From contig DYQY01000005.1 in the NCBI GenBank assembly GCA_020719045.1, positions 1 through 64,000 on the forward strand: a stretch of 64,000 nt of DNA, given 5' to 3'. Below are positions 45,386-64,000 of the stretch, piece by piece (position 1 is the stretch's first letter; each line of letters opens with the position of its first letter). This stretch comes from Candidatus Termititenax sp. (GTDB lineage: Bacteria > Margulisbacteria > Riflemargulisbacteria > GWF2-35-9 > DYQY01). The notes below the pieces were generated by a model. The model did not search any database. It saw only the letters and a list, made by a program, of their open reading frames with translations, and was not told the DNA's origin. The position numbers and the translations under genes were made by a program.

Positions 45386-45399
45386 TTATTTCTCCTTTA

Positions 45400-46905
45400 T
45401 TATCCCAAAATGCCAGTTGGAAATGATATTCCAAGGGCAAGTTGAAAAATTAAATAACAAACAATTGTGAAGGTGCTAGCTGTAACGAAAATAGTATATA
45501 TGTTTTTATTTTGGAGTATGAAAAGAGATATTGATAAGAAAATATAGGTTGCAACGTAGAAACCCATAAAAGGAACAGAAAGAAAATAAAGTAAAGTGAG
45601 AACTATTATTTGTATTGTTTTTACATTGTCTTCCTTAATAGGCTCTTTCTTGCTTCCAAGCAGTTCCGTTGCTATTAATGATGTGCTTAGTAAAATAAGT
45701 AATATTGACCAGATTCTTGGTATTAGGGCTGGACTTGTGATGTTTGCTTCTGGTGGTATAATGAATGAAAATGTTTGGTGTAAAAACATTAGTGATAACC
45801 AAATCATGCCAGCAGAAAACCAGATTGTAATAGATGTTTTTCTTTTTAAAATAAGTGCAAGGCTAATAATCGATATTATTAATAATGAAGAAATAGCGAA
45901 TCCAATCATAGTCGTTTGGATAGGGTTAAAGTTAATATAGCTTTGTAGTAATCCGGCTTTAGTAAGAAGTAGTTTAGTTTCATGTAATTCTTGGTTAATC
46001 TTTTTCTGAAAATTATTGTGACCGTTAAACTTGGAGAAAGCTCCTTGCTCCTCTATGTAACTAGTAAATTGTGGGTCTTTTACGATTTCTTTAAAGAGGT
46101 TTTCTAAGAAAGTTGTTACTTTTATTGGAGTTCCGTTGGCAACAGCATAACCTCTCCACATGTATTCTTCTAATGGGTATCCAAGTTCCTTAAAGGTAGG
46201 TACTTCTGGAAACTTTTTTAGTCTTTCAGGATGAGCTACAGCAAGAAGGATAAGGTCAGCTTTGCCTTCTATATCACCTGGGTTGCCAACACTAACAGGT
46301 GCTTCCTTTCTAAGTAATGCTAAGGCAGTTTGTGGGGAGCTTTTGTAGTCTACCCAAGTGCCTGAAATGCCTAGTGTTTCCCATACTTTTAGTGCCATTA
46401 GCTGGTCTCTTCCACCAGTTCCAGGTCCAGCCCATATTTGTTTGCCTTTTTTGCTTTTGGCATCTTCAACGAGACTGTTGAAATCATTTACTTGAGTATT
46501 TTTATTTCCAATAAGTACCTCTGCATCCTGCATAACCTCTGCCACATAGAAAAAGTCTTCTATTTTAACAGTTGTTGCATTTACAAGCACAGAAGACAGA
46601 AACGATTTTGTCACGCCAAGTATTGTATAACCATCCCTTTTTTGGTTTAGGACATGGTTCATAGCTACAACGCCTTGTGTTCCAGGTTTATTTTCTATAA
46701 CCATTGTTACTTTGTGTTTTCTTTGTGCTATATCCGCTATTATTCTGGACATAATATCTATTCCAGACCCTGGTTTAGAATGAACTATGATAGTTATTGG
46801 TTTTGAAGGGAAATCCTTTTTGGTTCCTTTGTGCCCATAAATATTATTGACAATCAGAAATAATGCGCATAGTAAAAAAACTGAAATAATTAGCTTTTGT
46901 TTCAT
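45400..46905 (-). CDS. TctC-TctB fusion: binding protein joined to small membrane subunit
   Basis: 501 residues. A hydrophobic segment (about 4-22) begins the protein. Residues ~33-325 match the Bug/TctC periplasmic binding fold: FPSKPITIIVHSKPGSGIDI, VIENKPGTQGVVAMNHVL, WAGPGTGGRDQ, WRGYAVANGTP. The rest has four or five helices with SPALIPRIWSILLILL, the signature of TctB. Normally these are two genes (~320 and ~150 residues). Here the receptor would be tied to the membrane. No frameshift or internal start splits them. TATAAT lies eight bases before ATG and no Shine-Dalgarno is seen. Confidence 0.85.
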   Translation of the reverse strand: MKQKLIISVFLLCALFLIVNNIYGHKGTKKDFPSKPITIIVHSKPGSGIDIMSRIIADIAQRKHKVTMVIENKPGTQGVVAMNHVLNQKRDGYTILGVTKSFLSSVLVNATTVKIEDFFYVAEVMQDAEVLIGNKNTQVNDFNSLVEDAKSKKGKQIWAGPGTGGRDQLMALKVWETLGISGTWVDYKSSPQTALALLRKEAPVSVGNPGDIEGKADLILLAVAHPERLKKFPEVPTFKELGYPLEEYMWRGYAVANGTPIKVTTFLENLFKEIVKDPQFTSYIEEQGAFSKFNGHNNFQKKINQELHETKLLLTKAGLLQSYINFNPIQTTMIGFAISSLLIISIISLALILKRKTSITIWFSAGMIWLSLMFLHQTFSFIIPPEANITSPALIPRIWSILLILLSTSLIATELLGSKKEPIKEDNVKTIQIIVLTLLYFLSVPFMGFYVATYIFLSISLFILQNKNIYTIFVTASTFTIVCYLIFQLALGISFPTGILG

Positions 46906-46913
46906 TTTGATTA

Positions 46914-46919
46914 ATTATA
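46914..46919 (-). promoter_or_regulatory. -10 box placing the tctCB start at or near its ATG
   Basis: A perfect TATAAT on the minus strand with eight bases (TAATCAAA) to ATG. The -35 is not clear (TTTTAA lies 18 bases upstream). It suggests a leaderless or near-leaderless message. Confidence 0.5.
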
Positions 46920-47003
46920 TCTTTATATCGCTTGTCATTAAAATTAAGAAACGATAACAATACTATTAAGAAAAGATTTTAAAACGTAATCTGTTGTAAA
47001 TAT

Positions 47004-47037
47004 ATACTTAATAAATATCGTTTATCTTATTAAGTAT
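47004..47037 (+). promoter_or_regulatory. 11-bp perfect inverted repeat before the PHP-glycosyltransferase gene
   Basis: ATACTTAATAA (47004-47014) and TTATTAAGTAT (47027-47037) are separated by 12 bases and end three bases before the ATG. The left arm with its flank (ATACTTAATAAATATCG) recurs with one change at 52743-52759, in the other divergent intergenic region of this part. Likely a regulator site; a hairpin over the start is the alternative. Confidence 0.55.
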
Positions 47038-47040
47038 ACG

Positions 47041-49425: not shown

Positions 49426-50037
49426 TTAATATTTAAGATTAATTTTTTCTTTTAGGAATTTAATATAGTTTGTGTTTTGTTTTAAGGTTAGACCATGCTC
49501 TTTCACTAGATCCCATACCTTGTTTTGATCTTCGTTTTCAAAGGATACAGTATAGTAAGGTTTATTGTTAACGATGATTTCTGCTAACTCTGATCTAACG
49601 CCAACTGGTCTAAAACCATGCCTGATTTTACTAACTGTAACAAGGTGAAGTTCTTTGTAAGATTTTATGATTTCAAAGAATTCTTCTTTGGAGAACTCAT
49701 TCTGGTTTAGCTTTGGTAATGGTAGCTCAAGTCCTTTGAAGAGAAGTGCAAGATTATGGATGCTTAAAGGAAAAGGTGCTTTGAGTGCTACTGTCCAGAG
49801 CTCCAATTTGTTCTCATTTACTCTTAAAGGAAGTTTCATATCCATAAATTCAAAGCGAAGTTTTATATTATCGTTAGAAAGTTCAGAAAGAATATAGATT
49901 TCTTGACTTTCTAGAGACCTATAGCAATCATCTTTCGAAAAATACTTTTGTCCTTCTTCTTTGGATATATCAAATGTTCTCCATTCAAAGCGTGGAATAA
50001 TATCATCTGGATTGAAAGTATTTTGAATTTCTGACAT
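49426..50037 (-). CDS. CYTH-like (triphosphate tunnel) protein of unknown function
   Basis: 203 residues. The layout IPRFEWRTFDISKEEGQKYF, QEIYILSELSNDNIKLRFEF, MDMKLPLRVNENKLELWTVA, SKIRHGFRPVGVRSELAEII resembles a family I know from polyphosphate/exopolyphosphatase contexts with a CYTH-like fold. The classical ExExK is replaced by FEWRTF. This is a weak assignment. Its stop abuts the stop of the convergent PHP gene with no base between (TAATTA). TATACT (50045-50050) is seven bases before ATG and there is no Shine-Dalgarno. Confidence 0.5.
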   Translation of the reverse strand: MSEIQNTFNPDDIIPRFEWRTFDISKEEGQKYFSKDDCYRSLESQEIYILSELSNDNIKLRFEFMDMKLPLRVNENKLELWTVALKAPFPLSIHNLALLFKGLELPLPKLNQNEFSKEEFFEIIKSYKELHLVTVSKIRHGFRPVGVRSELAEIIVNNKPYYTVSFENEDQNKVWDLVKEHGLTLKQNTNYIKFLKEKINLKY

Positions 50038-50086
50038 GTGAAATAGTATAATCCACTTATCCTGATAGAGCTATATTAAGATTTTG

Positions 50087-52681
50087 TTAAGGGAGCATAT
50101 AGTATGTTGCGTGGAGATAGTCTAATAGTTTATCTAGAGCATAAAGTAATAGTGCTGTTGTGCCTACATGCATTCCAATAGAAGCAACTGCTGTAGATGA
50201 TTCAAACTTGTGGGTGTACCTTTCTTCTAGGGATCTATTTGCCTTTGGTATATCTCTTCTTAAGTAAGTGCCAACACGCATTGCTTCCATCGCTACTATC
50301 ATTGTTTTAATGGTGTCATTTGTTAGAATATGGTCTGGTAGCCAGATAGAACTTAAGATAGTACCAATTATTGCAATGTATCCAAATAATACATGCTTAG
50401 GGTATTCAGGCATACTTCGTTGTATTTTTTCATTGTTTAGTGGCCATCTGACAAGTGAATCCAACATGTCTAGTACGATTAGTGGAATGAATAAGTTCCA
50501 GTATGAGTCTCCTATTAGCATCATTGAACTTTTTGGTAGAGCATACATTAGTAAATATAGAGAAGCGGAGAACATTGATAGTCCATATCTAATTGAGGAT
50601 AATTTTCTTTCGCAGTTTTCAACTTGTTTTCTTAAAATATTTGTGGCTGCTATACCTCTGCTCGCTTTAAACCATAAATAGATTGAGAAACCTATTCCAA
50701 GTTCTTCCCCTTGGTCAAGCATGTTGAAGAGGGTGTCATGTGGAATTAAGAACCCAGATATTGTTAATAGTGCCAATGTTCTAAGAAAATATGGGTTTGA
50801 CGTAATCTTCCGATATAAAAGAGATAGGTCATGAGTGTTGCTGTGTTTGCTTATTACCTGCAACTGGTTTTGAAAGAACGTGTAATATATGCCTTTTGGT
50901 AGTCCAAGTTTATGAGGAAATTCTTTCAGAGCTTTTTGAAAATCATAGTTTGAAGGTAATTTTTTTAAGTTATAAGAAGGGTTACCGAAATGGTCATAAG
51001 GAAACAGAACCCATTTTTTGTCTCCGTCTTCGATTAAGAAAATCGTGAAGTCATTTAATGTATGCTCATTTGTCGCAAGTTTTGTGAATTGTATTGTTGC
51101 GTTTTCGCTAAACTTTGTTTCAGATGCTTTCTTTAGAATAGCTAATACTTGTCTTCTTTGTGCTCTAGATAATGTATGTTCTCCATTGATTATTTTAATG
51201 TCTTTTAGGACTTCAATAAGTTTTCTTTTGTTACTACTTCTAAATTTAAATAAATCATTATTATTCATTCTTCCAAGTTCATTGATAAATCCGTCTTCTT
51301 CAAGCTTTTGGAAAATTCTTGCAGAAAGTTCGGCATTAATGAGTTGTCTTCTTTCAGATTCAAGAGTATATCTTCTTCTGTTTGGAGCTGATGAGTGTTG
51401 AGTAACATAATGCTCCTTATTTACATTCATAAATGAACGTTCTGATACTTTTCCAAACGTAACCATGAACTTATCAGCGTTTGTTTCATTTATTGTTGGC
51501 ATTGTGTCCATTAGATTAGCTTCTGTTATTGTAGTAGGTGAATAGATTCTGTTTGCTGGTATTGTTTTGAGTTGTTCAAATCTGTTATGAAAAAAGCTAT
51601 AAGCGTGCTGAGGATGTTGTTGTGTCATTTGTCTTCCAACAGAACTGAAAGCCATAGCTAAGTTTGCTTGTTGCTCTATGTTTATATTGACCATAAAACT
51701 GTTTCTGAGTGCTTCAATTACTTCTGTTGGGTTAAAGCCAAGATTATTAAGTACAGGAGTGAGTACTGTTTGAACTACAGAATCATCGAATGGATCAACA
51801 AGAAGTCTTCGGTCCTTGGATAAAATATTATTTTCAATAAGCTTATTAATAAGTTGTTTAGCTGTTACAGCATCATTGTCAGGGTAACGAATAGTGGTTA
51901 GATCCTCTTCTTTGACTATACCTGCTCTCACAGATATAGATGCATAGATTTTACCCTCAGGATTATCAAACTCAATGTCAATATTGTCTCTAACTTTAGC
52001 TATTTTAATTAACTCTAAAAAGTAGTGATATCCGGAAGATAGTTTATACCAAAAATGTCTCATTGAGTTAGCCTCCAGTGAGCAATCTTCTGTTTGGTAC
52101 AATTCAAATTTGTAATCATTATTAATGTTACCTTTTATACTTTTTACTAATAGGTCATTTAGTTGATTAGTTAATGATGATAACTGTTTATTTCTGATTT
52201 TAAAGTAGTCGTGTCTTTTATTTGATGACCAGAAAACTGATAACAAAGTTTGATACCAAGTTCGTTCTTCAGGAGCTAGTTGTAAAGTATCTAAAATATT
52301 CTTTTCTGATTCATGTTCGTTTAAATTGGATAGTAATACTTGAAGGTTTTTTAGTACTTGGTTTGTTCTAAGCAGTTTAAGGAGTAGCCCACTTTTATCG
52401 TTTTCTTTAATAGTTTCAGGTGGAAGTAGCGTTGTTGCTGTTTGTAAGGTAGCCTCGTAATCTGCAAGTAAACTTTGGTCGTAACTAAGGTAATCATCGG
52501 TTCTTGACCTAAAGCTGTTCTTTGCTTCTGCTGCTGATTTTTTAATAGTCTGGATTAGATTAGAATAGTTTTCTATTTCTGTATCCAGAGGGCTTTTTAT
52601 GGAGCATATTTTATAGCGTAAAGTTATATTGTTTGTTTTCATTTCAAGTAATATATCGTAGAGATTATTAAAATATTTCAT
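50087..52681 (-). CDS. Large protein of unknown function with C-terminal membrane domain
   Basis: 864 residues, not recognised. Residues 1-~190 are helical and charged. The middle includes ASISVRAGIVKEED (about 255) and two stretches of a helical module, NDAVTAKQLINKLIENNILS and SARIFQKLEEDGFINELGRM. Then comes FTIFLIEDGDKKWVLFPYDH. The last ~240 residues have several hydrophobic helices (TLALLTISGFLIP, GLSMFSASLYLLMYAL, LFGYIAIIGTILSSIWL, VGTTALLLYALDKLL). No signal peptide, so the long part should be cytoplasmic. It is divergent from the HD gene at 52795. No Shine-Dalgarno is seen. Confidence 0.6.
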   Translation of the reverse strand: MKYFNNLYDILLEMKTNNITLRYKICSIKSPLDTEIENYSNLIQTIKKSAAEAKNSFRSRTDDYLSYDQSLLADYEATLQTATTLLPPETIKENDKSGLLLKLLRTNQVLKNLQVLLSNLNEHESEKNILDTLQLAPEERTWYQTLLSVFWSSNKRHDYFKIRNKQLSSLTNQLNDLLVKSIKGNINNDYKFELYQTEDCSLEANSMRHFWYKLSSGYHYFLELIKIAKVRDNIDIEFDNPEGKIYASISVRAGIVKEEDLTTIRYPDNDAVTAKQLINKLIENNILSKDRRLLVDPFDDSVVQTVLTPVLNNLGFNPTEVIEALRNSFMVNINIEQQANLAMAFSSVGRQMTQQHPQHAYSFFHNRFEQLKTIPANRIYSPTTITEANLMDTMPTINETNADKFMVTFGKVSERSFMNVNKEHYVTQHSSAPNRRRYTLESERRQLINAELSARIFQKLEEDGFINELGRMNNNDLFKFRSSNKRKLIEVLKDIKIINGEHTLSRAQRRQVLAILKKASETKFSENATIQFTKLATNEHTLNDFTIFLIEDGDKKWVLFPYDHFGNPSYNLKKLPSNYDFQKALKEFPHKLGLPKGIYYTFFQNQLQVISKHSNTHDLSLLYRKITSNPYFLRTLALLTISGFLIPHDTLFNMLDQGEELGIGFSIYLWFKASRGIAATNILRKQVENCERKLSSIRYGLSMFSASLYLLMYALPKSSMMLIGDSYWNLFIPLIVLDMLDSLVRWPLNNEKIQRSMPEYPKHVLFGYIAIIGTILSSIWLPDHILTNDTIKTMIVAMEAMRVGTYLRRDIPKANRSLEERYTHKFESSTAVASIGMHVGTTALLLYALDKLLDYLHATYYMLP

Positions 52682-52717
52682 AAAAGGATGTAATTAACAA
52701 AAAAGTCATATTCGTAT

Positions 52718-52759
52718 AAGTATTTGTTAGTTAGCGTAATAAATACTTAATAAACATCG
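52718..52759 (+). promoter_or_regulatory. Inverted repeat in the divergent region between the 864-residue gene and the HD gene
   Basis: AAGTATTT (52718-52725) and AAATACTT (52741-52748) form an 8-bp inverted repeat. It runs into ATACTTAATAAACATCG (52743-52759), which matches 16 of 17 bases of the motif at 47004-47020. The AAGCGATATATT just before the HD gene ATG may be its -10. Confidence 0.45.
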
Positions 52760-52794
52760 TTGGGAAATAATTTAAACTTAAGCGATATATTTTC

Positions 52795-54273
52795 ATGTTA
52801 AATAAAATAGTGGCTTGTAAGCGATTTACAATTTTACCTTTTCATAAAAGGATTTCTGATAATGTATTTGCAGAAATAAAGTTTAATGAACTGGAGAATC
52901 TTGTTTTGCAAACTATTGTTTTCAATAGGTTAAAGGATGTCACTTCTTTAAGTGCAGCTAACCAGGTGTATCCAACTACGGTTCATAAGCGATTTGAGCA
53001 TTCGCTAGGTGTTATGTCCTTAGCTTCTGATATTTTCGATAGATTATTTAGTCCTGATTCTATTTCTAGAGCTTCAAAATCAAAAAGAGATAAACTTCAG
53101 GGATTTATTAATGGGTATGATTTGGAGTATTGGAAGCAAGTTGTTAGACTAGCAGGGCTTTTACATGATTTAGGTCATTTATCTATGTCACATGTAGCGG
53201 AGCAGGCTATTTTATTTAAAAGGGGCATAAGCCATGAGACGATGTCATATATTTTAATGAAAAGTCCAGAAGTAAAAAATATTTTGTATAGCTATGGAAT
53301 AGCCGTAGAGGATGTAGCAAAAGTAGCGCTTAATCAGGATGAGTATTTGAAAATATTCCCAAATTATAGTTATTCCCCATTTGAGAAAATCATGAACGAG
53401 ATAGTAACAGGAGATGCTTTTGGGGCAGACAGAATGGAATATATGTATAGAGACGCAAAGAACTCAGGAATTGTAACAGGCGAATTTAATAGAGAGGCAA
53501 TTATTAAATCACTAGTACTTCTTCCATATAACGGGAATTACCACATAGGGGTTATGAAAAATCCAGGAGTTGATGCGGTTTGTGATTTATTAAAGTCAAG
53601 AAAAAGCATGTATCATTTTATTGCCTATCATCCATTAACTATTGCCTATGACAATATGATGAAGAAATTAATTAGAGACTTAACCCCAACAAGTTTTTTA
53701 GACGTTATAGATAGGATTGCGAAGAACATTGGAGGAGCTTCTGAAGAAGATATTAAGTCTGTAGCTATTTATTATGAACTTATTAGTGATTCTTATTATT
53801 TGTCTGCAATCAAAGAGTTGTTAGTTTATGGAGAGCATCCAGAGTTTGCTAAGAATAATTCTTCTTTGTTTGATAAAGTGGAAAGATTAAAAGTAGCACT
53901 TGGTGATAAGTTTGAGAAAGCATTAGAAACAGCTAGTCGATATTTGTTAAGACAACATGACCACAAGATTTGGACATTAGAGCCACCAAATTTCGAAGAA
54001 AAGAAACAAAATATGAATAAATTATTAATTGCGCTACGTGAACACTTTGGAGAGGAAATGATTATTGAAAGGACTATTGTTAAGAATAAACCAAACCCTG
54101 ATTTTCCAATCTTGAATTCAAGTGGGAAAGTTTATTCTTCTTTTGACGATCCAGACTATAAGCCTTTCTTAGAAGATGCTTTTGCGAGAGTGTATTTTTA
54201 TTGTCATCCAGATATCAAGGAGCAGGTTCATTCCTGGATGAGAAAAAATGCTAGTAGGGTTTTAGGGATATAA
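52795..54273 (+). CDS. SAMHD1-like HD-domain dNTP triphosphohydrolase
   Basis: 492 residues. H69 in HKRFEHSLGV, H124-D125 in GLLHDLGHLSMSHVAE, and D207/D212 in GDAFGADRMEYMYRDAKNSG give the full HD set in the order seen in SAMHD1/COG1078 proteins. These hydrolyse dNTPs to nucleoside and triphosphate; some act in phage defence. Catalysis is inferred. Triphosphate would be a substrate for CYTH enzymes and polyphosphate metabolism encoded nearby. TATATT (52786-52791) lies three bases before ATG and no ribosome site is present. Confidence 0.83.
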   Translation: MLNKIVACKRFTILPFHKRISDNVFAEIKFNELENLVLQTIVFNRLKDVTSLSAANQVYPTTVHKRFEHSLGVMSLASDIFDRLFSPDSISRASKSKRDKLQGFINGYDLEYWKQVVRLAGLLHDLGHLSMSHVAEQAILFKRGISHETMSYILMKSPEVKNILYSYGIAVEDVAKVALNQDEYLKIFPNYSYSPFEKIMNEIVTGDAFGADRMEYMYRDAKNSGIVTGEFNREAIIKSLVLLPYNGNYHIGVMKNPGVDAVCDLLKSRKSMYHFIAYHPLTIAYDNMMKKLIRDLTPTSFLDVIDRIAKNIGGASEEDIKSVAIYYELISDSYYLSAIKELLVYGEHPEFAKNNSSLFDKVERLKVALGDKFEKALETASRYLLRQHDHKIWTLEPPNFEEKKQNMNKLLIALREHFGEEMIIERTIVKNKPNPDFPILNSSGKVYSSFDDPDYKPFLEDAFARVYFYCHPDIKEQVHSWMRKNASRVLGI

Positions 54274-54362
54274 CTTTTAGCGGTTTCTTAATATAAAAGT
54301 AATCTTTTATTTACTTATACTTCATGGGATTTCTATGAGAAATCATCGATATATTATCAGCT

Positions 54363-57300
54363 ATGAAAAATAAAGTTATATCATTTATCGAGGCTCCGAC
54401 CTTTAAACCATATGATTCTTCATTGTTTCCGAAGAGTAGGTATAGAGATTTTAAGCTTATTCAGTTTCAGTTAGGAGTCTTAAATCAAAGTCTGAGAGAA
54501 TGGGTAAGGCCAATGGACCAACTATTTAAAAACTTTTTCGTGGCAAGCAATATGCGAGAGCTTTACGGAGATAGAATTTCAAGGCTTACAGATAGGATGA
54601 TTTCTGGAGAAAAATATGCTAATGGAGAATCACCAAAAGAGATATACGAGGATTTAAGAACACGCGCTGTTGAGGTTAGGGGTATGCAACATGAGGTGTT
54701 AAGCTCCTTAATGAAGAAGCTTGAGACAGATAGAGTTTTTAAAATGCATCAAGGAGAAGAGTGTATTTCAAATCTTTGTGATAATAACAAGAAGTATTTG
54801 ATTGCGCTTTTTTCAAAGAAAGTAACCAGAGAGAATATGCGTATTCTTTTAGGTGGTGTTGATGCCTCAAACATGCTCAGTGATGATCAGCTAAAAAGTA
54901 TTTTGTATGCCTTAGAAAGCCATGGATTAGTAAAAAATGGTGAATTTACAGAGCAATTCAAAAAGGAAATGATTGATAATGATCCAACATTATTTGAATA
55001 TGAAAAGCAAACACCATTTAAATTGTGGATTCAGTCAAGGGTTTTACCTAGAACACTTAAGCCCCTTATTGACGGCTTAAAGCAACAGTATTTATTAACT
55101 CATCTTGAACCAATAAAGAGAAACCTTGTTAAGAATGTAGTAGATGCTGATGTAGGATTAGTAGTGAGTAGTAACGGTTTTTGTTCTTTAATTCCATTTC
55201 ATGTTCAGCTTAATAGGGTGATTCAGTTGCCTTTTCAGGAAGGTGAGCAAAAATATAATTTTATTTATCTTGAGGATTTAGTAAGGCATAACTTAGAGCA
55301 GATTATGGGATTTCGCTCAAAAGATGCTGAGACAAGAATGGCGTTGTTTGTTAGAAACGTAAATGTACCTTTTACCATAAAGGATAGTCCTGATGAAAGA
55401 AAGGTAATGGCAAGGGGAGTATTAGCAAGAAAGACTGCTGAAATTGTGATGATAGAGGTTGAGCAAGGTTGTTCAGATAGAATAAAGGGTTTTCTTAAGA
55501 GTAAGAGTAAGTTTAAGGCTGGTTTTCACAACTACGTTCCTATTTTAAGGGGTGTTTTGCCAATTGAGGTTCCAGGAAGAATAGATGCTAGGTTTGTTGG
55601 TGATATTTATAAGGCAGTTGATAGAAAAGAATTAAAATATGAAAAATACAGAAGAATAACTCCAAAATATAATAGTTATGTCCGATATGCAATGTTTAAT
55701 GAACTTTTATTTCAATGGCCATATCATGAGTTTATTTTAGATAAAGTAGTTAATGAGACTATTGATATTTTTGAATATTTAAAGAATCCAGATGTTTTGG
55801 GACCTGATAGAGTGAAAATGTCTTTGTATCAGTCACTATACAGAACAGATGAGGAGTCTGCCCCAATGCATGCGGTAGAGAGAGCCGCAAAAGCAGGCGT
55901 CTCAGCTCATATTATTTGTGAGATAAAGGCAAGGTTAGATGAGATTTCAAACTTTAAATGGGCTAGAAGGTTAAAAGAAGCTGGTGCCCATGTTCATTAT
56001 AGTATGATGAAAAGAAAGATTCATACAAAGGTTACAGTTTCAAAATTAGAAATTAAACAAGAGGGTCTATTATCTAAAAGTAATTTTACTTCAGAACAGT
56101 GGCAAGTAATGATTAGTAGTGGGCTAATTGAGCCTGTAAAGGGGCAACCAGAAAAAGCTATTTGTACAAAATTATTAAATCCAAAATTATTGCCTGAAGG
56201 ACTACGACCTTCAAGTGACATTCAATCAATGTTGCCTGTTCAACTTATTGCTGACTTAGCTTTAACAGAAGAGCAGCAATTAATGATTAAATCTGCGGAT
56301 ATTTGTTTAAGAATTACCCATGTTGGAACAGGAAACATTCGAGAAGGTTCAGCTAAAAACTTTGAGGATATAAATGTTTTTTCCACAAAGCCTTCTTTAG
56401 GACGAGAAGCACAATATATGTTTGATAGCTTAGAGGCTAGCGTTCTTCCTGATGAGCCAGAAGGTGAGATGTGGTTTGGGAATCATTTAAAAGAACATTT
56501 AAGGGAAAAGATTAGCTGTGAAATAGCCAAAGGTAAAAATGGTTATATTTGTATAAAAGTAAATCAGCTAGAAGATGATGAAATGATTGACCTTTTGTAT
56601 CAGGCATCACAGGCAGGAGTAAATGTAGATATTTTTGTTAGAGGATTTAATATTATTCGAACTGCAAATTTAGAGCCATTAACTTTGACAAATGCAGATA
56701 TTGGCGAAACAGAGCTTAAAGCTGACGCTAATAGGATTATTACTAATGACCAGGCTATAAATATTTGGGGAAAGCTAAAGGAAATAGGAGTAATAGACGA
56801 GGCTAATCTGATAAGTAAAGACTATATGACTAATAGGAATAGAGTTTTTTCATTGTTATCTACAGAAACAGGAAAAGAAAAAGCAACACAGGTTATGGAA
56901 AAGGTTTTGGATGAAGCGTTTAAAATGAGAAAGTTTTCTGAAAATATTAGACTTTATCGAGTTATTGATAGACATTTAGAGCATTCAAGAATTTATATTT
57001 TTGGTAAAGGGGAGGACCCTTTTGTGGTTATCGGTTCTGCCGACATCATGAAGCGTAATCTTCGTAAGAGACAAGAAGCTGATAGAGTTATAAAGGAACC
57101 AGCATTAAAAAAGCAGATACTAGAAATAGTTGATATTTATAAGAAGAATCCTGCCCACATGGAAATCATGACAACTAATGAGAGGTATTACCTAATGGAC
57201 ACTGACCAGACTGGCAAGTCGGTTCAGGAACATTTACTTCCTTTATATCATCATACCAGTAGAGATGATGGGCATGCTAATAAGTGGCTGTTTTATGAAT

Positions 57301-57509
57301 GCTTACAACAAGATACAGCAAACAATATTTTTGGACAACTTTCATCGAAATTTCCTTCTTCGTTTACGTGGACGAATGGACACCTTCGGTCGGATTTTAT
57401 TGTTACGGATGAGATTATTAGTGAGCTGAGTGAGAAGATTTATGCTTATCCTGGCATGGATAGGCTTGTTGGGTATTTGATTAAGATTATGTTACAAAAC
57501 TGGGAATAG
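54363..57509 (+). CDS. PPK1-type polyphosphate kinase with large insertions
   Basis: 1048 residues versus about 690 for normal PPK1. Core landmarks: FFVASNMRELYGDRISRLTD, FIYLEDLVRHNLEQIMGF, YQSLYRTDEESAPMHAVERA, catalytic H554 in KRKIHTKV, HVGTGN (652-657), ASQAGVNVDIFVRGFNIIR, second His H874 in HLEHSRIYIF and IGSADIMKRNLRKR. Extra sequence sits near 160-265, between H554 and HVGTGN (~80 residues), and between the VRG motif and NIRLYRV (~85). Both active-site His are kept, so polyphosphate synthesis is plausible. TATATT lies seven bases before ATG; no Shine-Dalgarno. Confidence 0.85.
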   Translation: MKNKVISFIEAPTFKPYDSSLFPKSRYRDFKLIQFQLGVLNQSLREWVRPMDQLFKNFFVASNMRELYGDRISRLTDRMISGEKYANGESPKEIYEDLRTRAVEVRGMQHEVLSSLMKKLETDRVFKMHQGEECISNLCDNNKKYLIALFSKKVTRENMRILLGGVDASNMLSDDQLKSILYALESHGLVKNGEFTEQFKKEMIDNDPTLFEYEKQTPFKLWIQSRVLPRTLKPLIDGLKQQYLLTHLEPIKRNLVKNVVDADVGLVVSSNGFCSLIPFHVQLNRVIQLPFQEGEQKYNFIYLEDLVRHNLEQIMGFRSKDAETRMALFVRNVNVPFTIKDSPDERKVMARGVLARKTAEIVMIEVEQGCSDRIKGFLKSKSKFKAGFHNYVPILRGVLPIEVPGRIDARFVGDIYKAVDRKELKYEKYRRITPKYNSYVRYAMFNELLFQWPYHEFILDKVVNETIDIFEYLKNPDVLGPDRVKMSLYQSLYRTDEESAPMHAVERAAKAGVSAHIICEIKARLDEISNFKWARRLKEAGAHVHYSMMKRKIHTKVTVSKLEIKQEGLLSKSNFTSEQWQVMISSGLIEPVKGQPEKAICTKLLNPKLLPEGLRPSSDIQSMLPVQLIADLALTEEQQLMIKSADICLRITHVGTGNIREGSAKNFEDINVFSTKPSLGREAQYMFDSLEASVLPDEPEGEMWFGNHLKEHLREKISCEIAKGKNGYICIKVNQLEDDEMIDLLYQASQAGVNVDIFVRGFNIIRTANLEPLTLTNADIGETELKADANRIITNDQAINIWGKLKEIGVIDEANLISKDYMTNRNRVFSLLSTETGKEKATQVMEKVLDEAFKMRKFSENIRLYRVIDRHLEHSRIYIFGKGEDPFVVIGSADIMKRNLRKRQEADRVIKEPALKKQILEIVDIYKKNPAHMEIMTTNERYYLMDTDQTGKSVQEHLLPLYHHTSRDDGHANKWLFYECLQQDTANNIFGQLSSKFPSSFTWTNGHLRSDFIVTDEIISELSEKIYAYPGMDRLVGYLIKIMLQNWE

Positions 57510-57554
57510 CGAGAATATTGTTGAATATTTTCGATAATTTATAGGGAGACAAAA

Positions 57555-59072
57555 ATGCAAATAAAGAGTAGTGATTTAAAATTAGCAAATTCTCAACTAA
57601 GTTCACTTATTTCTGGTTCAAGTAACCTGAAGTCAGACAACAGTGCTTATCATTCAGGGGATACAAGTAAGCTGACTTTACAAGAAATACAGGATATGCC
57701 AAGAATAGCTTCCTCTAAGGGATACAAGATTCATCCGATACTTGCAGAGATTCTTGTATACAAACCTGTTTTTGAAGTTATTGCAGGTCTAGATGGTGAT
57801 AACTCATCAATTAGTTTAGCTGATATTAGTAAATCTAGTGAAGCTACTGATTCTGTAGTAAGTAAAATTCATGAGGTATTGCCAGGGACGTTGGCATATA
57901 AGACAGACGAGGAGCAAGGAGTTGTCTCTAATTTTAAGAGATCAGCGGATCTTTCGGAGATGGCTACTTTTGAGTTATCAGATGTGGCTAGTGTTGATCT
58001 TAAAGGTAGACAGTATTTTTTTGCAGTGGAGAGAGATGCTAATCTTAAGGGTGAAGCAAGAAGTGTGCTTTTTATAAGAAACTCAGAGACTAAGAGTTTT
58101 AAAATATTAGATTTAGAGCAATTTGGAGTTGTTAATACGGGATTTAGTGGAATAGATTTACAAGAAACCGATAAGGAATATATTCTTACAATACTATCTA
58201 ATAAATTCAACACAACTGCAATAGAAACAGCAGTTGATGATAAAGGACATCGGATTGAGAATAAATTTACTTTTAAGATGAGTGGAAGAGAGTATTCTTT
58301 TATCCCTCCAAAACCAAGGTTTATTGTTCGGGATGCTTTACTTACAGAAGAGTCTACTGGACTTCCAATTAAATTGTTAGTTGAGCTAAGACAAAAGGAT
58401 TTAGCCCCGATTATGATAAGTTCTTTTTATTACCTAAATCAAATACATTTTCCAAAAGAATATTTTTTTGGACAGGCAGATGAGTCAAGTGTGAAGAGTT
58501 TACGTTATTTGATGGAGGCAGGTCGTTCTGCAACAAGACAGTCTGAGATGATGGTAAAAAGATATGGAAGTAGTGCAAGGATGGAGCTAGAAGGTATCAG
58601 TGTAGTAGGAGATAGGGCATATATGATGAATAGTGATAGTAATGATGGTATTCCAACCTACTTGTATATTGATTTAAATACAGCCAGTGTTGATAAATCA
58701 AAAAAATTAGAAGAGAAGACAGTTGATGTTCAAAAGATCGGAGACTTTGGAGAACTTTCTACTCTTTTAGGAATTGAGAAGATAGTGACTTTTGGAATGA
58801 CTTCAAGAGATGGATACTTGTATACATTGCATGGTCAACCAGGTAACGATAAAGATTTCTTTGTGGTAAGAGTCAAAGAGTCAGACTTAAGGAGCGGTAA
58901 TATGCAGGAAGTTTATAAGAATATAAAGATTGTTCCTGTAAATCTAGCAGGTTATTCAAATAGAACAATAAGACCATATAGTTTGTTTTTTCAAGGAAAT
59001 GAAATAGGAGTTGGAATTAAAGATGGTAAAGATAGAACGACAGTTCTATATTTTGACGCAAAAGACATATAA
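57555..59072 (+). CDS. LDGD-motif protein 1 of a tandem trio
   Basis: 505 residues, family not recognised. After a helical N-terminus (LTLQEIQDMPRIASSKGYKI) comes FEVIAGLDGDNSSISLADIS at 73-92, an Asp-rich loop like an EF-hand or dockerin repeat. The remainder is beta-rich with alternating strands and turns (YFFAVERDANLKGEARSVLF, KILDLEQFGVVNTGFSG), possibly a propeller. No signal peptide or membrane helix. AGGGAGAC lies before ATG, 45 bases after the polyphosphate kinase. The two genes after it have the same layout. Confidence 0.6.
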   Translation: MQIKSSDLKLANSQLSSLISGSSNLKSDNSAYHSGDTSKLTLQEIQDMPRIASSKGYKIHPILAEILVYKPVFEVIAGLDGDNSSISLADISKSSEATDSVVSKIHEVLPGTLAYKTDEEQGVVSNFKRSADLSEMATFELSDVASVDLKGRQYFFAVERDANLKGEARSVLFIRNSETKSFKILDLEQFGVVNTGFSGIDLQETDKEYILTILSNKFNTTAIETAVDDKGHRIENKFTFKMSGREYSFIPPKPRFIVRDALLTEESTGLPIKLLVELRQKDLAPIMISSFYYLNQIHFPKEYFFGQADESSVKSLRYLMEAGRSATRQSEMMVKRYGSSARMELEGISVVGDRAYMMNSDSNDGIPTYLYIDLNTASVDKSKKLEEKTVDVQKIGDFGELSTLLGIEKIVTFGMTSRDGYLYTLHGQPGNDKDFFVVRVKESDLRSGNMQEVYKNIKIVPVNLAGYSNRTIRPYSLFFQGNEIGVGIKDGKDRTTVLYFDAKDI

Positions 59073-59089
59073 AAAGAAGGAGTTGAAAA

Positions 59090-60376
59090 ATGGTAAATGT
59101 TAATTACGATACAGGAAGGATAAACAGCATAAGACAGATGGGGGCTTTTCAGATTAAGGAAGCGTTAAAGGGAGGTTCCTTAAGTTCAGGTGAGGCTTTA
59201 AAAACATTGTCAGCTTCAACAAAAGGTAGTGAGGATAATATTCTCGCTTCTGTTATTTCTCAGAACTTCCAAGTATTTGCAAATCTTGACGGGAATCCAG
59301 GTCTAAGTGCTGGTGATATGGATATTTTGATGCTTTCCTCTGACGTGGTTAGACAAACAGGCAACAAAAGCTTTGTCAGTGCATCAGATAAATTACACAG
59401 TGGTATTGTTTCAGAATTAGAGAAAAGCTTAGATATGCAAGTTGCTCCAAGTAGACTTGCAATACAAGCTGATGCGATAGACGTGATTAACACTAGTCAA
59501 GGTAAAGCTATTTTTTACGTTAGAGAGGGAAATATAAGAGTTCAGAAGGATAAATTTGTTGTTAATCAGAGAGGCGTTGAATTAATAGTTGAGATAGTTG
59601 GCAAAGATGGTATTTCTTCTGAAAAATTAGTAGAGCTTCCAGTTCCTGCGAATTCCGCTTTTTCTACGACCATAAGGTCAGCTTCAGTAAACAAAACAGG
59701 TAATGGCTATCAGCTTGATGTTTATCTTGATTCAATGGACAGTAGGGTTATAAATGGAGCAAAGGTTTCTTATAGTCTAGACTCTTCTTATAATCTTGTT
59801 CGTAATGAAGAGGGCGAGCCTACTATTGATATTGCAACGCTTTCTACTGTGGTAGTTGATAGGGATAACTTAGGCGGACTTGCTTCGCTTGGTAAAGGCA
59901 AATATTGTGCAATACAAAATAAGGGTAAAGAAGGTTTGTTTTTCTATGCGTTAAAAGAACAATTAAAAGGAACAAATATTGATATGGTTATGGATGACCA
60001 AAGGACTTCAGTTAGAAATATTAAGCTTGGAAATGTTAGAGAAAATTTCTCTACTGTTGATTTAAGTAATTACTCAGTCAGTTCTGCTGAAGCAGATGAT
60101 AATAAGTTATATGTCCTTTTAGTTAGTGAGCAGAATAAGAATCAACATTTTCTTTTAGTTGTTGATAGAAATCAGCTTCAAGACTCTAATAAAACAATGA
60201 CAGAAGGCTTTGATATTGTGATGTTACCATCAGATGTTCTTGGCTTGTCAGATGTAAGAACAATGTCAGTAAACAGTGGCAGAATTCATTTTTTTAACCA
60301 CGCAGAAAATATGGTTAAAGATGAGGATTTTGGACAGGTTGTTTCTTTTGATATTAATAAACTATTAGTCAAATAG
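59090..60376 (+). CDS. LDGD-motif protein 2 of a tandem trio
   Basis: 428 residues. Same plan as its neighbours: helical start (FQIKEALKGGSLSSGEALKT), then NFQVFANLDGNPGLSAGDMD at 59-78 with Asn in place of the second Asp, then a beta-rich body, ending in DVRTMSVNSGRIHFFNHAEN like the IRSMSVSNNRIYLL of protein 3. No known domain, signal peptide or membrane helix seen. AAGAAGGAG precedes ATG, 17 bases after protein 1. Clearly an operon. Confidence 0.6.
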   Translation: MVNVNYDTGRINSIRQMGAFQIKEALKGGSLSSGEALKTLSASTKGSEDNILASVISQNFQVFANLDGNPGLSAGDMDILMLSSDVVRQTGNKSFVSASDKLHSGIVSELEKSLDMQVAPSRLAIQADAIDVINTSQGKAIFYVREGNIRVQKDKFVVNQRGVELIVEIVGKDGISSEKLVELPVPANSAFSTTIRSASVNKTGNGYQLDVYLDSMDSRVINGAKVSYSLDSSYNLVRNEEGEPTIDIATLSTVVVDRDNLGGLASLGKGKYCAIQNKGKEGLFFYALKEQLKGTNIDMVMDDQRTSVRNIKLGNVRENFSTVDLSNYSVSSAEADDNKLYVLLVSEQNKNQHFLLVVDRNQLQDSNKTMTEGFDIVMLPSDVLGLSDVRTMSVNSGRIHFFNHAENMVKDEDFGQVVSFDINKLLVK

Positions 60377-60387
60377 GGCTGATACTT

Positions 60388-61875
60388 ATGGATATTGCAA
60401 CAGTTAAGAGTGGAGCAGCAGAAGTATCAAAATACTTTTTTGAGTCTAAAAAAGGTCATTTAGATAAGGATACTGCACGCATCTCTTCTGATGAGGTGAG
60501 CTATTGTTTGAATTTTGGTTCAACGAATCTTTCCGCTAACGCAAAGGTATTTATGGAAGGGTTACTTTTTAGAAAAGTTTTCCTTTCAGTAAGCGGACTT
60601 GACGGTGATACGACTACTGGTGTTTCTTTAGAAGATATCAACATATTAGCCTCAAAGCAGGATGCAGCTCAGATAGAGAAGATATTCCAAACTATTCCGC
60701 AGATAAATGTATTAGAGAACTCAACGGAGTATGGAATAAATACAAAAGAATCAATTCATTCATTTCAGGTTTTTCCTATAGGTGGTGAAAAGAAACTAAT
60801 ATATGTTGCAAGAGGTGATTTAGGACTTTCTCCTACTGGGTTTTGGGTCGGAAATATTCAGGATGATTTTGGACAAGAGTACATTAGTTTAGAAGGTAAA
60901 CAAATCAATAATGCAGATTTCGGCGGACTTGATGTTAAGAATGAAAACGGAGAAGTAGTAATCAATATACTAAATAGACCAACATCAAAAATAGAGATAA
61001 AGAGAGTAACTAATAACATATATGAATTTAATCTTGGCGGAAAAGGTCAAAATGAAATTAATCATATTATCGTTTACGACAGAGAAGATGAGAAACAATA
61101 TTATGCTGATTTGCAAAGAAAGTTTTTTATTCATAAATCAGAGAAAGAGAAGTTTTTTAATAAGGACGGTAGACTTGTTTCTATAAGAATGAATGCTAAT
61201 AAATCACCTAATACTGTAACTTTACCTTTTTCTTTAGAAAGACTTACGGTTAGAGAACAAGACCTTAAAGGGCTTTTCCTTGAAGAGAAGATAAAGCATT
61301 CTGCGCTTACAGATGATGGAGTTATGATGGGAGTTGGTAGTATTCCTGGTGCAAATGCAGAGCAACTAGCCGTATACAAGATGTTAGCGACATCAGATAC
61401 AAGGGGTATAGTAAGTTCAGACAAAGGTGTATATGTTTTTGGTGAAGTAAATAATGACCAGAAAGTTTTTTTTATTGATAAAGATTCAAGGATAACTTTG
61501 ATAGATAAAGGTTTGTTTTTTTCTAATAATTTTGGGGTACAGAATGCAAAAGTTATAGCTGCTTCATATAGTAGTAATAGCTTTGTGTTGTTGGTACAGA
61601 ACTCAGAAAGAAAAGACGGAGATAGTATTCGTACATATTATCTAGCCAGTATTACAGAAGAAGAATTGCATTCTAGTAAAGAATGGAATTTATCTCCTTT
61701 TAAAGTAATAACAGATTCTCTTTCACCTGAAGCGACAATTAGATCAATGTCAGTAAGTAACAATAGAATATATCTATTATCAGATGACCCTTCTAGAGAA
61801 GATCATGGTAAAAAGGAACATATTATTCATGAGTTAAGCTCAGAAGTATCCTCTAAAATATTAGGAGCAAAATAA
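60388..61875 (+). CDS. LDGD-motif protein 3 of a tandem trio
   Basis: 495 residues. FLSVSGLDGDTTTGVSLEDI at 65-84 follows a helical segment (ISSDEVSYCLNFGSTNLSAN). The body is beta-rich with turns such as FGGLDVKNENGEVVINIL. It ends TIRSMSVSNNRIYLLSDDPS and a helical tail. Weak ribosome site (AGGGCTG), eleven bases after protein 2, so translation may be coupled. Its TAA overlaps the ATG of the next gene (TAATG). Function unknown. Confidence 0.6.
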   Translation: MDIATVKSGAAEVSKYFFESKKGHLDKDTARISSDEVSYCLNFGSTNLSANAKVFMEGLLFRKVFLSVSGLDGDTTTGVSLEDINILASKQDAAQIEKIFQTIPQINVLENSTEYGINTKESIHSFQVFPIGGEKKLIYVARGDLGLSPTGFWVGNIQDDFGQEYISLEGKQINNADFGGLDVKNENGEVVINILNRPTSKIEIKRVTNNIYEFNLGGKGQNEINHIIVYDREDEKQYYADLQRKFFIHKSEKEKFFNKDGRLVSIRMNANKSPNTVTLPFSLERLTVREQDLKGLFLEEKIKHSALTDDGVMMGVGSIPGANAEQLAVYKMLATSDTRGIVSSDKGVYVFGEVNNDQKVFFIDKDSRITLIDKGLFFSNNFGVQNAKVIAASYSSNSFVLLVQNSERKDGDSIRTYYLASITEEELHSSKEWNLSPFKVITDSLSPEATIRSMSVSNNRIYLLSDDPSREDHGKKEHIIHELSSEVSSKILGAK

Positions 61876-64000
61876 TGGTAACTGGGGCGGATAGCTTAAA
61901 GAGAACTAGCGTTACAACCCAGTCAGTCGATGGATATGGCGAATACATTCCGACCCATGACCCAGCAAATGAAGTTCAATTACCACAACTAAATTTAATC
62001 GAAGGTGCCGTTGTTCCTTTTGGTCCAATCGTACTTCCTGACCTTGAACCAATCGAGGGGGAGGTCCTGACTGACGAAATAATTCTACCTGAGCTAGATG
62101 CATTGCAAGAGAGTCCTCTTCTAAGTGATGATTATCAAGATATGAAGTCATGGTTTGCTGAGATAAAGAGACGCTATGTTTTAGAGTCGGATTATAAAGA
62201 ATTTTTATCAGCTATAGATAGGAAGCTGAAGGATACCAAAATTGTAGATACTGAAAAAGCTGAGTATTCAGCAATGGGTGTTGGCGTTGTGCTGTTGTCA
62301 AAGAAAAGGAATAACCTTGACTATTACTTAAAAGAGTTCGAGAAGAATTTTTTAACAACAAAATCAGATGTTAATAAACAGTCAGTAGAGTATGGCTTTT
62401 GGGTATTAGATGCTGTGTCCAAGTATACAAGTAATTCCAAGTATCGTGAGCATGTAAAATCGATTTATTCTAGATGTTTCCAAACATGCCCAATGGAAAC
62501 TTACAGCTGGTTAACCGATGGCATATATGCAGAGCACTTAAGTGAACATTTTAATAATATAACAAAACCATCTGACACAAAAAAAAGAGTAAAAAGGCAA
62601 GAAGAAGTTTTAATAGCTAGGGATAGATTTAGACAAATAAATAGTCGTTTCCTGAGTTTAGGTCTTATAGATAAAGAGATGAAGCCAGAAGACGCTAGAA
62701 AGATACATGCATACTGTCTTGAACTAGCAAAACGTCAGCAACTTGCAGGCAAGAATGGTATTAAGATTGATCCGTTTAAGCTTGATAATGTACTAGTTGG
62801 TAAGGTGTTTGGTCGTGGATATACAGGCTTATCCTCGTCAATGATGCCAGCTTCTAATGAGAGCTTAATAAATAGGCCGATAATCTCTCTTCCTGACTAT
62901 AGAATAACCTATAGAAATTTTGGTGAAGAAGGAATCAAAAGCAAGTTTGACATCATGGATATAGCAGGAGACAAGGCTAGAGAAAATGGGTTTCAATTAG
63001 ACAATGCAAGAGATATTGCAAGAGACTTAGGCGATGATGACCTTTTTAATTTATTGGATACCAATGATCCCGTAGGTTTTAAGGATACTGGTATTGATGA
63101 AGCATTTAAATTAAATGATGTTCCTAGGGGATTTGGTACTGTAGTGATTGACCCAGCTATTGCAGATATAAATAAACAGCTTGTCAGTGAGGAAGAGTTT
63201 ATTGCTCCAGACGGAAGCGCTGTTTATAAGAAAGTAGAGACAGAAGCAGCTGTGCAGGACTTAACGCTTCAGCATAATCAATTTTATTCTGAGCAAGCTC
63301 ATACAGAGAAGGATTCAGCAATTGATACTACCATTTCCCTTCATTCAGGCTATGCAAAAACAACAACGATTGTAGATGATGGTACTATTTCTGAACAAAG
63401 GACTCAAACATTTAATGACTTTCATACTAGGGAAAGAAATACAGACTTGCAACTTACGACTACAACGGTTCAAGAGTCATACCCAACTGGAGCAGAAAGT
63501 GTTACGGTTACGACTGACTTAACAGGAACACAAAAGAGAACAGACGTATATAATGCAGCTAGAACTAGAACAATAGACAGAGATATAACTCAGAGTAAAG
63601 CTGAGGTCAAAACGACAATAGACATGTTTGGAAACACAGCTTTAAATGAAGAAACTAAGGAAATAATTAATGAAAAAATAGTTGATGTAAGAAATCCTAA
63701 TCGAACAATAACAACAGATAATAAATGGGAAACAAGTAAAGAGGTAGAAACCAAATATAATCCTGATGGAACCTTGGCTGTTGAAGGAACAAGAACATAC
63801 CAACTTGAAAGTGATAGAAGTGATGTGAGAACAGGTAGGACTATTAACTCGGAAATAGACGGTACTATTGTTAGAGAGAGTAAAGGTACGATAGGTTTGG
63901 ATGGAAATGAGGCTGAGGATTATATTGAAACTCAGGACTTTGATGTAACGAAAAATGATAAACGTGTTGATAGAGAGATTGATACTGTTAGTGAGCAGAA
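61875..64000 (+). CDS. Very large Thr-rich protein, 5' part (runs off the window)
   Basis: The frame opens at ATG 61875 and has no stop to the window end: at least 708 residues. The first ~80 residues are Pro/Glu-rich (IVLPDLEPIEGEVLTDEIIL). Residues ~80-400 are helical (EIKRRYVLESDYKEFLSAID). From ~470 on the sequence is Thr/Asp/Arg-rich with repeating beta-like units (ITQSKAEVKTTIDMFGNTAL, TYQLESDRSDVRTGRTINSE, DGTIVRESKGTIGLDGNEAE). No Rhs YD or RTX GGxGxD repeats are seen. It overlaps protein 3 by one base, so it belongs to the same operon. Confidence 0.65.
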   Translation, partial: MVTGADSLKRTSVTTQSVDGYGEYIPTHDPANEVQLPQLNLIEGAVVPFGPIVLPDLEPIEGEVLTDEIILPELDALQESPLLSDDYQDMKSWFAEIKRRYVLESDYKEFLSAIDRKLKDTKIVDTEKAEYSAMGVGVVLLSKKRNNLDYYLKEFEKNFLTTKSDVNKQSVEYGFWVLDAVSKYTSNSKYREHVKSIYSRCFQTCPMETYSWLTDGIYAEHLSEHFNNITKPSDTKKRVKRQEEVLIARDRFRQINSRFLSLGLIDKEMKPEDARKIHAYCLELAKRQQLAGKNGIKIDPFKLDNVLVGKVFGRGYTGLSSSMMPASNESLINRPIISLPDYRITYRNFGEEGIKSKFDIMDIAGDKARENGFQLDNARDIARDLGDDDLFNLLDTNDPVGFKDTGIDEAFKLNDVPRGFGTVVIDPAIADINKQLVSEEEFIAPDGSAVYKKVETEAAVQDLTLQHNQFYSEQAHTEKDSAIDTTISLHSGYAKTTTIVDDGTISEQRTQTFNDFHTRERNTDLQLTTTTVQESYPTGAESVTVTTDLTGTQKRTDVYNAARTRTIDRDITQSKAEVKTTIDMFGNTALNEETKEIINEKIVDVRNPNRTITTDNKWETSKEVETKYNPDGTLAVEGTRTYQLESDRSDVRTGRTINSEIDGTIVRESKGTIGLDGNEAEDYIETQDFDVTKNDKRVDREIDTVSEQ

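What the first reader, a model, noticed from the sequence alone, without database searches (positions are those of the whole stretch)
54363..57509. PPK1-like polyphosphate kinase enlarged by about 350 residues
Both active-site histidines (H554, H874) and the HVGTGN and GSADxMxRN elements are visible, yet extra blocks sit near 160-265, ~560-645 and ~765-855. The inner two fall inside the catalytic core. I know of no common PPK1 with such inserts, which could add regulation or partner binding.
Basis: partly seen in the sequence, partly recalled or inferred. Interest (0 to 1): 0.7.

Follow-up and report, generated by a model that had tools for sequence, protein, structure and literature searches.

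The report
Polyphosphate kinase with three inserted blocks
A bacterial polyphosphate-making enzyme (PPK1) keeps a complete active site, yet carries three extra blocks of about 80 amino acids, two of them inside its catalytic core; at least one block belongs to a small module also seen in giant proteins of the same lineage and in restriction enzymes, which makes it an unusual variant of a well-known enzyme.

Summary
Window 54363-57509 encodes an intact 1048-aa PPK1-family protein. Three internal inserts (residues ~134-209, ~566-649, 769-854; excess ~78, 80 and 86 aa) and a C-terminal extension are absent from all 80 cellular and all checked phage PPK1s. All PPK1 catalytic and nucleotide-contact positions checked are kept (His554, His874, Asn63, Arg494, Arg524, Arg760, Arg903, Glu905; one conservative Tyr-to-Phe), although 47 of 124 otherwise near-invariant columns differ. 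The AlphaFold2 core matches solved PPK1 (TM 0.83-0.87 by target length). It is highly divergent (longest branch) and scores below NCBIfam's equivalog cut-off, so I file it as a divergent PPK1-family protein, probably an active polyphosphate kinase. Insert 3 belongs to a ~75-aa module that recurs in giant proteins of this phylum and in the helical-spacer region of Type III restriction Res subunits; insert 1 probably does; insert 2 is unassigned. The gene lies in a ~32-kb region missing from the only held congener, which, like almost the whole phylum, lacks PPK1. The genome has two PPK2s and no Ppx/GppA. What the inserts do is inferred only: most likely partner binding or gating of the active site. 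New variant of a known kind.

The parts
54363..57509 (+). PPK1-family gene, 1048 aa
   Evidence: Pfam PF13090 2.8e-35, PF17941 4.5e-27, PF02503 1.2e-12
54762..54989 (+). Insert 1, residues 134-209, at the end of the N-terminal domain
   Evidence: 98 vs at most 21 residues between anchors in 80 PPK1s; helical with a short hairpin in the model
54870..54971 (+). Module-like core in insert 1 (residues 170-203), probable only
   Evidence: HMM without PPK copies gives only E=0.14-0.17
56022..56024 (+). Codon for His554, counterpart of the phosphorylated His435 of E. coli PPK1
   Evidence: invariant in 53 PPK1s
56058..56309 (+). Insert 2, residues ~566-649, in the catalytic core just after the strand that follows His554
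   Evidence: 101 vs at most 32 residues between anchors; mostly low model confidence; no family match
56319..56336 (+). HVGTGN motif, residues 653-658
   Evidence: H653, T656, G657, N658 invariant
56667..56924 (+). Insert 3, residues 769-854, in the catalytic core between the VRG strand and the strand leading to His874
   Evidence: 103 vs at most 17 residues between anchors
56733..56837 (+). Module core in insert 3 (residues 791-825)
   Evidence: HMM built without any PPK copy: E=2.2e-6;
56982..56984 (+). Codon for His874, counterpart of His592 of E. coli PPK1
   Evidence: invariant in 53 PPK1s
57033..57059 (+). GSADIMKRN motif, residues 891-899
57273..57506 (+). C-terminal extension, residues ~971-1048
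   Evidence: low-to-moderate model confidence
52795..54273 (+). HD-domain phosphohydrolase, 492 aa, 89 bp upstream on the same strand (possible operon partner)
   Evidence: PF01966 8.6e-8; phmmer 2hek 1.8e-24, SAMHD1 about 1e-9
50087..52681 (-). Divergently placed 864-aa protein of unknown family carrying one module copy (51242-51346, -)
57555..61875 (+). Three closely spaced downstream genes (505, 428 and 495 aa), unknown families; the 505- and 495-aa ones are related
43868..64000 (.). Part inside the window of a ~31.8-kb variable region (contig 43868-75652) missing from the congener
   Evidence: collinear flanks in G001:C9

Best explanation
It is a fast-evolving, probably catalytically active polyphosphate kinase of the PPK1 fold. 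Shown: the two-half PLD-like catalytic core, the phosphate-carrying His554, the second His874 and the ATP/Mg contacts are retained; three blocks of ~80 residues were added at three sites, two of them in the catalytic core near the active-site histidines; the gene lies in a ~32-kb region that the congener lacks; and insert 3 (probably also insert 1) belongs to a small helix-hairpin-helix module used in giant proteins of this phylum and in the helical-spacer region of Type III restriction Res subunits. Inferred: the enzyme makes polyphosphate from ATP through phospho-His554, in a genome with two PPK2s (able to use polyphosphate) and no Ppx/GppA; the inserts project from the core as docking or gating elements that couple polyphosphate synthesis to a partner protein or cell structure, possibly one encoded in the same variable region.
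For: Pfam domains above cut-off for three of four PPK1 domains. All contact positions tested conserved except Y468->F667, while 47 of 124 near-invariant columns deviate, as expected if selection spared catalysis (contact list from memory of E. coli PPK1). Predicted core superposes on 1xdo (TM by target 0.83) and ATP-bound 9uuh (0.87). Inserts absent from 80 cellular PPK1s and the checked phage PPK1s. Insert 3 recovered by an HMM without PPK copies, E=2.2e-6, with no other PPK1 scoring; module in the congener's giant protein and in Type III Res subunits. Two PPK2s, no Ppx/GppA. Host-like coding statistics throughout.
Against: Whole-protein score 280 bits against an equivalog cut-off of 466 in TIGR03705; N-terminal domain just under Pfam's cut-off (22.4 vs 23.8); terminal branch of 2.4, nearly twice the next longest. 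Inserts 2 and 3 are modelled with low confidence, so that they are compact and do not block the ATP pocket is not shown. No orthologue was found, so purifying selection cannot be measured. No direct evidence for any function of the inserts.
Confidence: 0.68

Rival explanations
1. A repurposed PPK1-fold phosphotransferase: the phospho-histidine chemistry is kept but the natural substrate or product is no longer polyphosphate (for example a nucleotide or another phosphorylated acceptor), with the inserts reshaping the tunnel.
For: Extreme divergence; loss of otherwise near-invariant residues, including the N-terminal S31/W32/N36/R38 motif and C763 in the second catalytic half; score below the equivalog cut-off; an HD phosphohydrolase related to SAMHD1 next door; most of the phylum has no PPK1.
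Against: All ATP- and phosphate-contact positions tested are kept; PPK2 partners present.
Confidence: 0.17
2. A decaying or structural pseudo-enzyme: the inserts are neutral expansions in a gene on its way out, or a scaffold that no longer works as an enzyme.
For: Long branch, inserts inside the core with low-confidence structure, no orthologue in the congener or elsewhere.
Against: Intact 1048-codon frame with normal coding bias in every segment; full set of catalytic residues in a strongly diverged background; high-confidence core.
Confidence: 0.12
3. The inserts are unrelated, lineage-specific expansions; the apparent shared module is a chance match to a common helix-turn pattern (L..L...G.I...G.I). 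(This rival concerns the inserts only and is compatible with an active PPK1.)
For: Insert 1 is not recovered with confidence by an HMM that excludes PPK copies (E=0.14) and insert 2 not at all; seeds were chosen by eye and regular expression, and the model was built from hits of a search first seeded with PPK copies; a profile of the module finds nothing significant in the PDB or Pfam.
Against: Insert 3 is recovered (E=5e-4 from four seeds, 2.2e-6) and none of 80 other PPK1s scores; a tblastn with an independent family member finds Type III Res subunits at one equivalent place.
Confidence: 0.3
4. Artefact: a mis-assembled or frameshifted gene joining unrelated coding pieces.
For: The genome is fragmented into 31 contigs, and no second genome with the gene is held.
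Against: Single open frame; PPK1 homology resumes in the same frame after each insert; the same codon bias in core and inserts.
Confidence: 0.02

Closest known systems
Bacterial PPK1 (E. coli Ppk, PDB 1xdo/1xdp; ATP-bound PPK1 9uuh)
   Same: Domain order, PLD-like halves, His435/His592 pair, ATP/Mg contact residues, predicted fold
   Different: Three ~80-aa inserts, a C-terminal extension, ~25% identity, score below the TIGR03705 equivalog cut-off, diverged N-terminal motif
Eukaryotic PPK1 (for example moss), which are enlarged
   Same: Larger than prokaryotic PPK1
   Different: There the extra mass is reported as N-terminal extensions (PMC3680246); here it is internal and C-terminal
Helical spacer of Type III restriction Res subunits (EcoP15I type, PDB 4zcf; PMC4490356)
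   Same: A ~60-75-aa stretch of the spacer region in two Res homologues matches the module found in insert 3 (spacer position)
   Different: No helicase, nuclease or DNA-methylase partner here; the link to insert 3 is by profile only; EcoP15I itself is not hit by the module profile
Giant module-bearing proteins of the same phylum (5577 aa in this genome, 3590 aa in the congener)
   Same: Share the module
   Different: No PPK1 domain; unknown function

Membership tests
PPK1 (polyphosphate kinase 1) | Pfam middle, C1 and C2 domains above curated cut-off | tested here: met
   48.3, 95.1 and 121.7 bits against 31, 25.7 and 25.8
PPK1 (polyphosphate kinase 1) | Pfam N-terminal domain PF13089 above cut-off | tested here: inconclusive
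   22.4 bits against 23.8; residues 28-125
PPK1 (polyphosphate kinase 1) | NCBIfam TIGR03705 equivalog cut-off (naming rule) | tested here: not met
   280.2 against 465.85 bits. The inserts split the match and the core is divergent. Hence filed as a divergent PPK1-family protein, not as a PPK1 equivalog
PPK1 (polyphosphate kinase 1) | Catalytic His435 and His592 equivalents | tested here: met
   H554 and H874 invariant
PPK1 (polyphosphate kinase 1) | ATP/Mg contacts (N45, R375, R405, Y468, R564, R621, E623 of E. coli, from memory of the crystal structure) | tested here: met
   N63, R494, R524, R760, R903 and E905 kept; Y468 is F667, conservative
PPK1 (polyphosphate kinase 1) | PPK1 fold | tested here: met
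   AlphaFold2 core mostly at pLDDT 80-98; Foldseek top five hits are PPK1s, TM by target 0.79-0.87
PPK1 (polyphosphate kinase 1) | ATP-dependent polyphosphate synthesis via phosphohistidine | not testable with these tools
   needs purified protein
PPK1 (polyphosphate kinase 1) | Dimer/tetramer assembly | not tested
   single-chain prediction only
Recurrent spacer-like module (Type III Res / giant proteins) | Profile match of insert 3 with PPK copies excluded | tested here: met
   E=2.2e-6 to 2.8e-6, with residual circularity through the original seeds
Recurrent spacer-like module (Type III Res / giant proteins) | Profile match of insert 1 with PPK copies excluded | tested here: inconclusive
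   E=0.14-0.17, but second best of all stretches in 81 PPK1s
Recurrent spacer-like module (Type III Res / giant proteins) | Profile match of insert 2 | tested here: not met
   no hit beyond chance
Recurrent spacer-like module (Type III Res / giant proteins) | Common fold (winged-helix-like?) | tested here: inconclusive
   insert-1 model pLDDT 58; Foldseek best E 0.9, several top hits winged-helix proteins

The most novel reading that the evidence does not exclude
A PPK1 repeatedly invaded by one small recurrent module, with a copy beside the active site that gates polyphosphate synthesis in response to a signal carried by the module-bearing giant proteins or by nucleic acid (the module is otherwise seen in restriction-enzyme spacers). 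This would be an allosterically wired, multi-insert PPK1, of which I know no other.
Probability: 0.1. Interest if true: 0.72.

Novelty: new variant of a known kind. Interest (0 to 1): 0.47.

Why it matters
PPK1 is the main bacterial polyphosphate synthase and had no comparable internal inserts in any comparator examined here. A variant that tolerates ~80-residue insertions near both active-site histidines while keeping every catalytic contact would show where the PPK1 core can be extended, and would offer a natural model for control of PPK1 by inserted domains. The shared module also links three protein classes not known to be related (PPK1, giant proteins, Type III restriction spacers).

Tried and rejected
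Close relatives: none by search with the protein in genome contigs, viral contigs or 74 genomes of the phylum; the two other PPK1s of the phylum (incomplete at contig ends) are ordinary where readable. A nine-sequence alignment was too diverse for a genome scan; a three-sequence one worked but returned only the best 80 of more than 595 candidates, so the survey is broad but not exhaustive. Inserts as known domains: no Pfam match and no PDB sequence match to the module. Recent mobile DNA element: no significant DNA repeat between inserts; the one 24-nt repeat inside insert 2 (83%) is weak. Direct repeat of inserts by pairwise alignment: only insert 1 vs 2 was marginal (1% of shuffles) and not module-based. 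Insert-1 model with three window sequences: low confidence, fold search not significant. Insert 3 against plasmids by tblastn: no match. Different PLD-superfamily enzyme: rejected, since PLD enzymes score far below PPK1 in Foldseek.

Full report
Observation. The ORF at 54363-57509 (+) encodes 1048 residues without a stop. Pfam finds the middle, C1 and C2 domains of PPK1 above their cut-offs and the N-terminal domain just below its cut-off; the C1 and C2 matches are split. His554, His874, HVGTGN at 653 and GSADIMKRN at 891 are present. The inserts were measured between conserved anchors against 80 cellular PPK1s from genome contigs and, in a second alignment, 53 PPK1s including phage ones: 98 vs at most 21 (32 in the second set) residues for insert 1, 101 vs at most 32 for insert 2, 103 vs at most 17 for insert 3; after position 942 it has 107 residues where others have 44 at the median. 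Coding statistics are host-like in frame 0 for every segment, inserts included, so a frameshift or chimera is unlikely.

Is it still a PPK1? Foldseek on the AlphaFold2 model (mean pLDDT 74, pTM 0.75, core mostly 80-98) returns PPK1s as its first six hits: E. coli 1xdo E 1.4e-37, TM by target 0.83; ATP-bound 9uuh TM 0.87, rmsd 3.9. In 53 aligned PPK1s, 124 alignment columns are at least 90% conserved; this protein departs from 47 of them, but keeps N45, R375, R405, H435, R564, H592, R621 and E623 (E. coli numbering; the contact list is my knowledge of the E. coli structure) and replaces Y468 by Phe. That pattern, loose elsewhere and strict at the chemistry, is the main argument for an active enzyme. 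Against it: the NCBIfam equivalog score is 280 against a cut-off of 466, and its branch (2.4) is nearly twice the next longest in a tree of 54. I therefore call it a divergent PPK1-family protein that most likely works like PPK1, and not a PPK1 equivalog.

Where the inserts sit. Insert 1 joins the N-terminal to the middle domain; the model shows helices and a small hairpin (131-206), moderate confidence. Insert 2 follows the strand after His554; most of 602-644 is below pLDDT 50. Insert 3 lies between the VRG strand (to 760) and the strand that starts at 862 and leads to His874; it is modelled as helices at low confidence. Whether they are compact side domains therefore remains open, especially for 2 and 3.

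What the inserts are. No insert matches Pfam. Insert 3, and less clearly insert 1, carries the pattern (I/L)-T/S-x-x-(Q)-x-x-x-I-x-x-x-L-x-x-x-G-(I/V)-(I/V). Within this genome a five-sequence profile finds it only in this protein, in the divergent 864-aa neighbour (51242-51346, -), and in 5577-aa and 1231-aa proteins on another contig. In other genomes of the phylum it finds further large proteins, including a 3590-aa protein of the congener. An HMM built from non-PPK copies only recovers insert 3 at E=2.2e-6 and insert 1 at 0.14, while no other of 80 PPK1s scores. There is residual circularity: the first seeds were chosen by eye and regular expression and the later set was gathered with a profile that included PPK copies; a model from four non-PPK seeds alone finds insert 3 at 5e-4. 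A tblastn with a family member from another genome of the class finds Type III restriction Res subunits (Rhizobium E 1e-4, E. coli 2e-3, Methanomethylovorans 9e-3); in the two annotated ones it lies at residues ~628-691, between helicase and endonuclease domains, the place of the helical spacer (aa 620-810) in EcoP15I (PMC4490356). Those two Res proteins match the phylum's module HMM at about 30 bits each. The module is not in Pfam and has no PDB sequence match. A stand-alone model of insert 1 is weak, and its non-significant Foldseek list is partly winged-helix proteins.

Context. PPK1 is nearly absent from this phylum: of 74 genomes only this one and two distant ones (family f22) have any PPK1, and those two are ordinary where readable. 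The congener (99% complete) has none, and its chromosome is collinear with this contig on both sides of a ~31.8-kb stretch (43868-75652) that it lacks; the PPK1 gene lies inside that stretch. Gain here or loss there cannot be told apart. The upstream gene (89 bp away, same strand) is an HD phosphohydrolase related to 2hek and SAMHD1, and three genes of unknown family follow at short spacing. The genome holds two PPK2s and no Ppx/GppA; PPK2 also occurs in other members of the order. A polyphosphate economy of PPK1 (maker) and PPK2 (user) is consistent with this, but not shown.

Mechanism. Shown: conserved chemistry, fold, inserts at three defined sites, module identity for insert 3. Inferred: ATP phosphorylates His554, polyphosphate grows in the tunnel, and the inserts, placed near both active-site histidines, dock a partner or gate access. 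The literature examined does not describe this: enlarged eukaryotic PPK1s are described as having N-terminal extensions (PMC3680246), and the paper searches made gave no multi-insert PPK1; the library holds open-licence papers only.

Limits. The genome contigs survey was capped (80 of more than 595 candidates) and metagenomes were not searched, so relatives with the same inserts may exist. The organism could not be named. Without an orthologue no selection test is possible.

Noticed in passing
window 43868-64000, continuing to contig position 75652: A ~31.8-kb region absent from the congener's collinear chromosome; it holds TctA, a fused TctC-TctB transporter gene, a PHP-glycosyltransferase fusion, the PPK1 cluster, a 2385-aa protein and two related lipoprotein-like proteins.
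   Followed up: partly
window 43356-43826 (-): CYTH-domain protein (PF01928) at the edge of the variable region, conserved in the congener; CYTH/TTM enzymes often act on triphosphates or polyphosphate (function from general knowledge).
   Followed up: partly
L030-L039 (IMG/VR contigs of 85-250 kb): Ordinary-sized PPK1 genes on large viral contigs, several over 200 kb, one beside a tail-fibre-like gene (L035) and one beside a phage-type helicase (L038). PHROGs has no family for the one tested, and no held paper joins 'jumbo phage' with 'polyphosphate kinase'.
   Followed up: partly
L040, 3074-5162: A viral contig whose PPK1 is split into two overlapping ORFs of 534 and 171 aa that share a repeated stretch (EIDEEISKRN-like), as if by a local duplication or frameshift.
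   Followed up: no
L013+L014 (G000:C20), 5577-aa ORF on the minus strand: Giant protein with a tandem duplication of period 1384 aa in which 1322 consecutive residues are identical: a very recent duplication or an assembly artefact.
   Followed up: no
window 50087-52681 (-): 864-aa protein with no Pfam family, hydrophobic stretches towards its C-terminus and one copy of the module, divergently oriented from the HD-PPK1 genes.
   Followed up: partly
L173 aa 628-691, L174 aa 637-690: The module lies in the helical-spacer region of Type III restriction Res subunits, a stretch with no Pfam model.
   Followed up: partly
window 57555-61875: Three consecutive ~430-505-aa proteins with a GLDGD / NLDGN motif near residues 60-80; the first and third are detectably related.
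   Followed up: no
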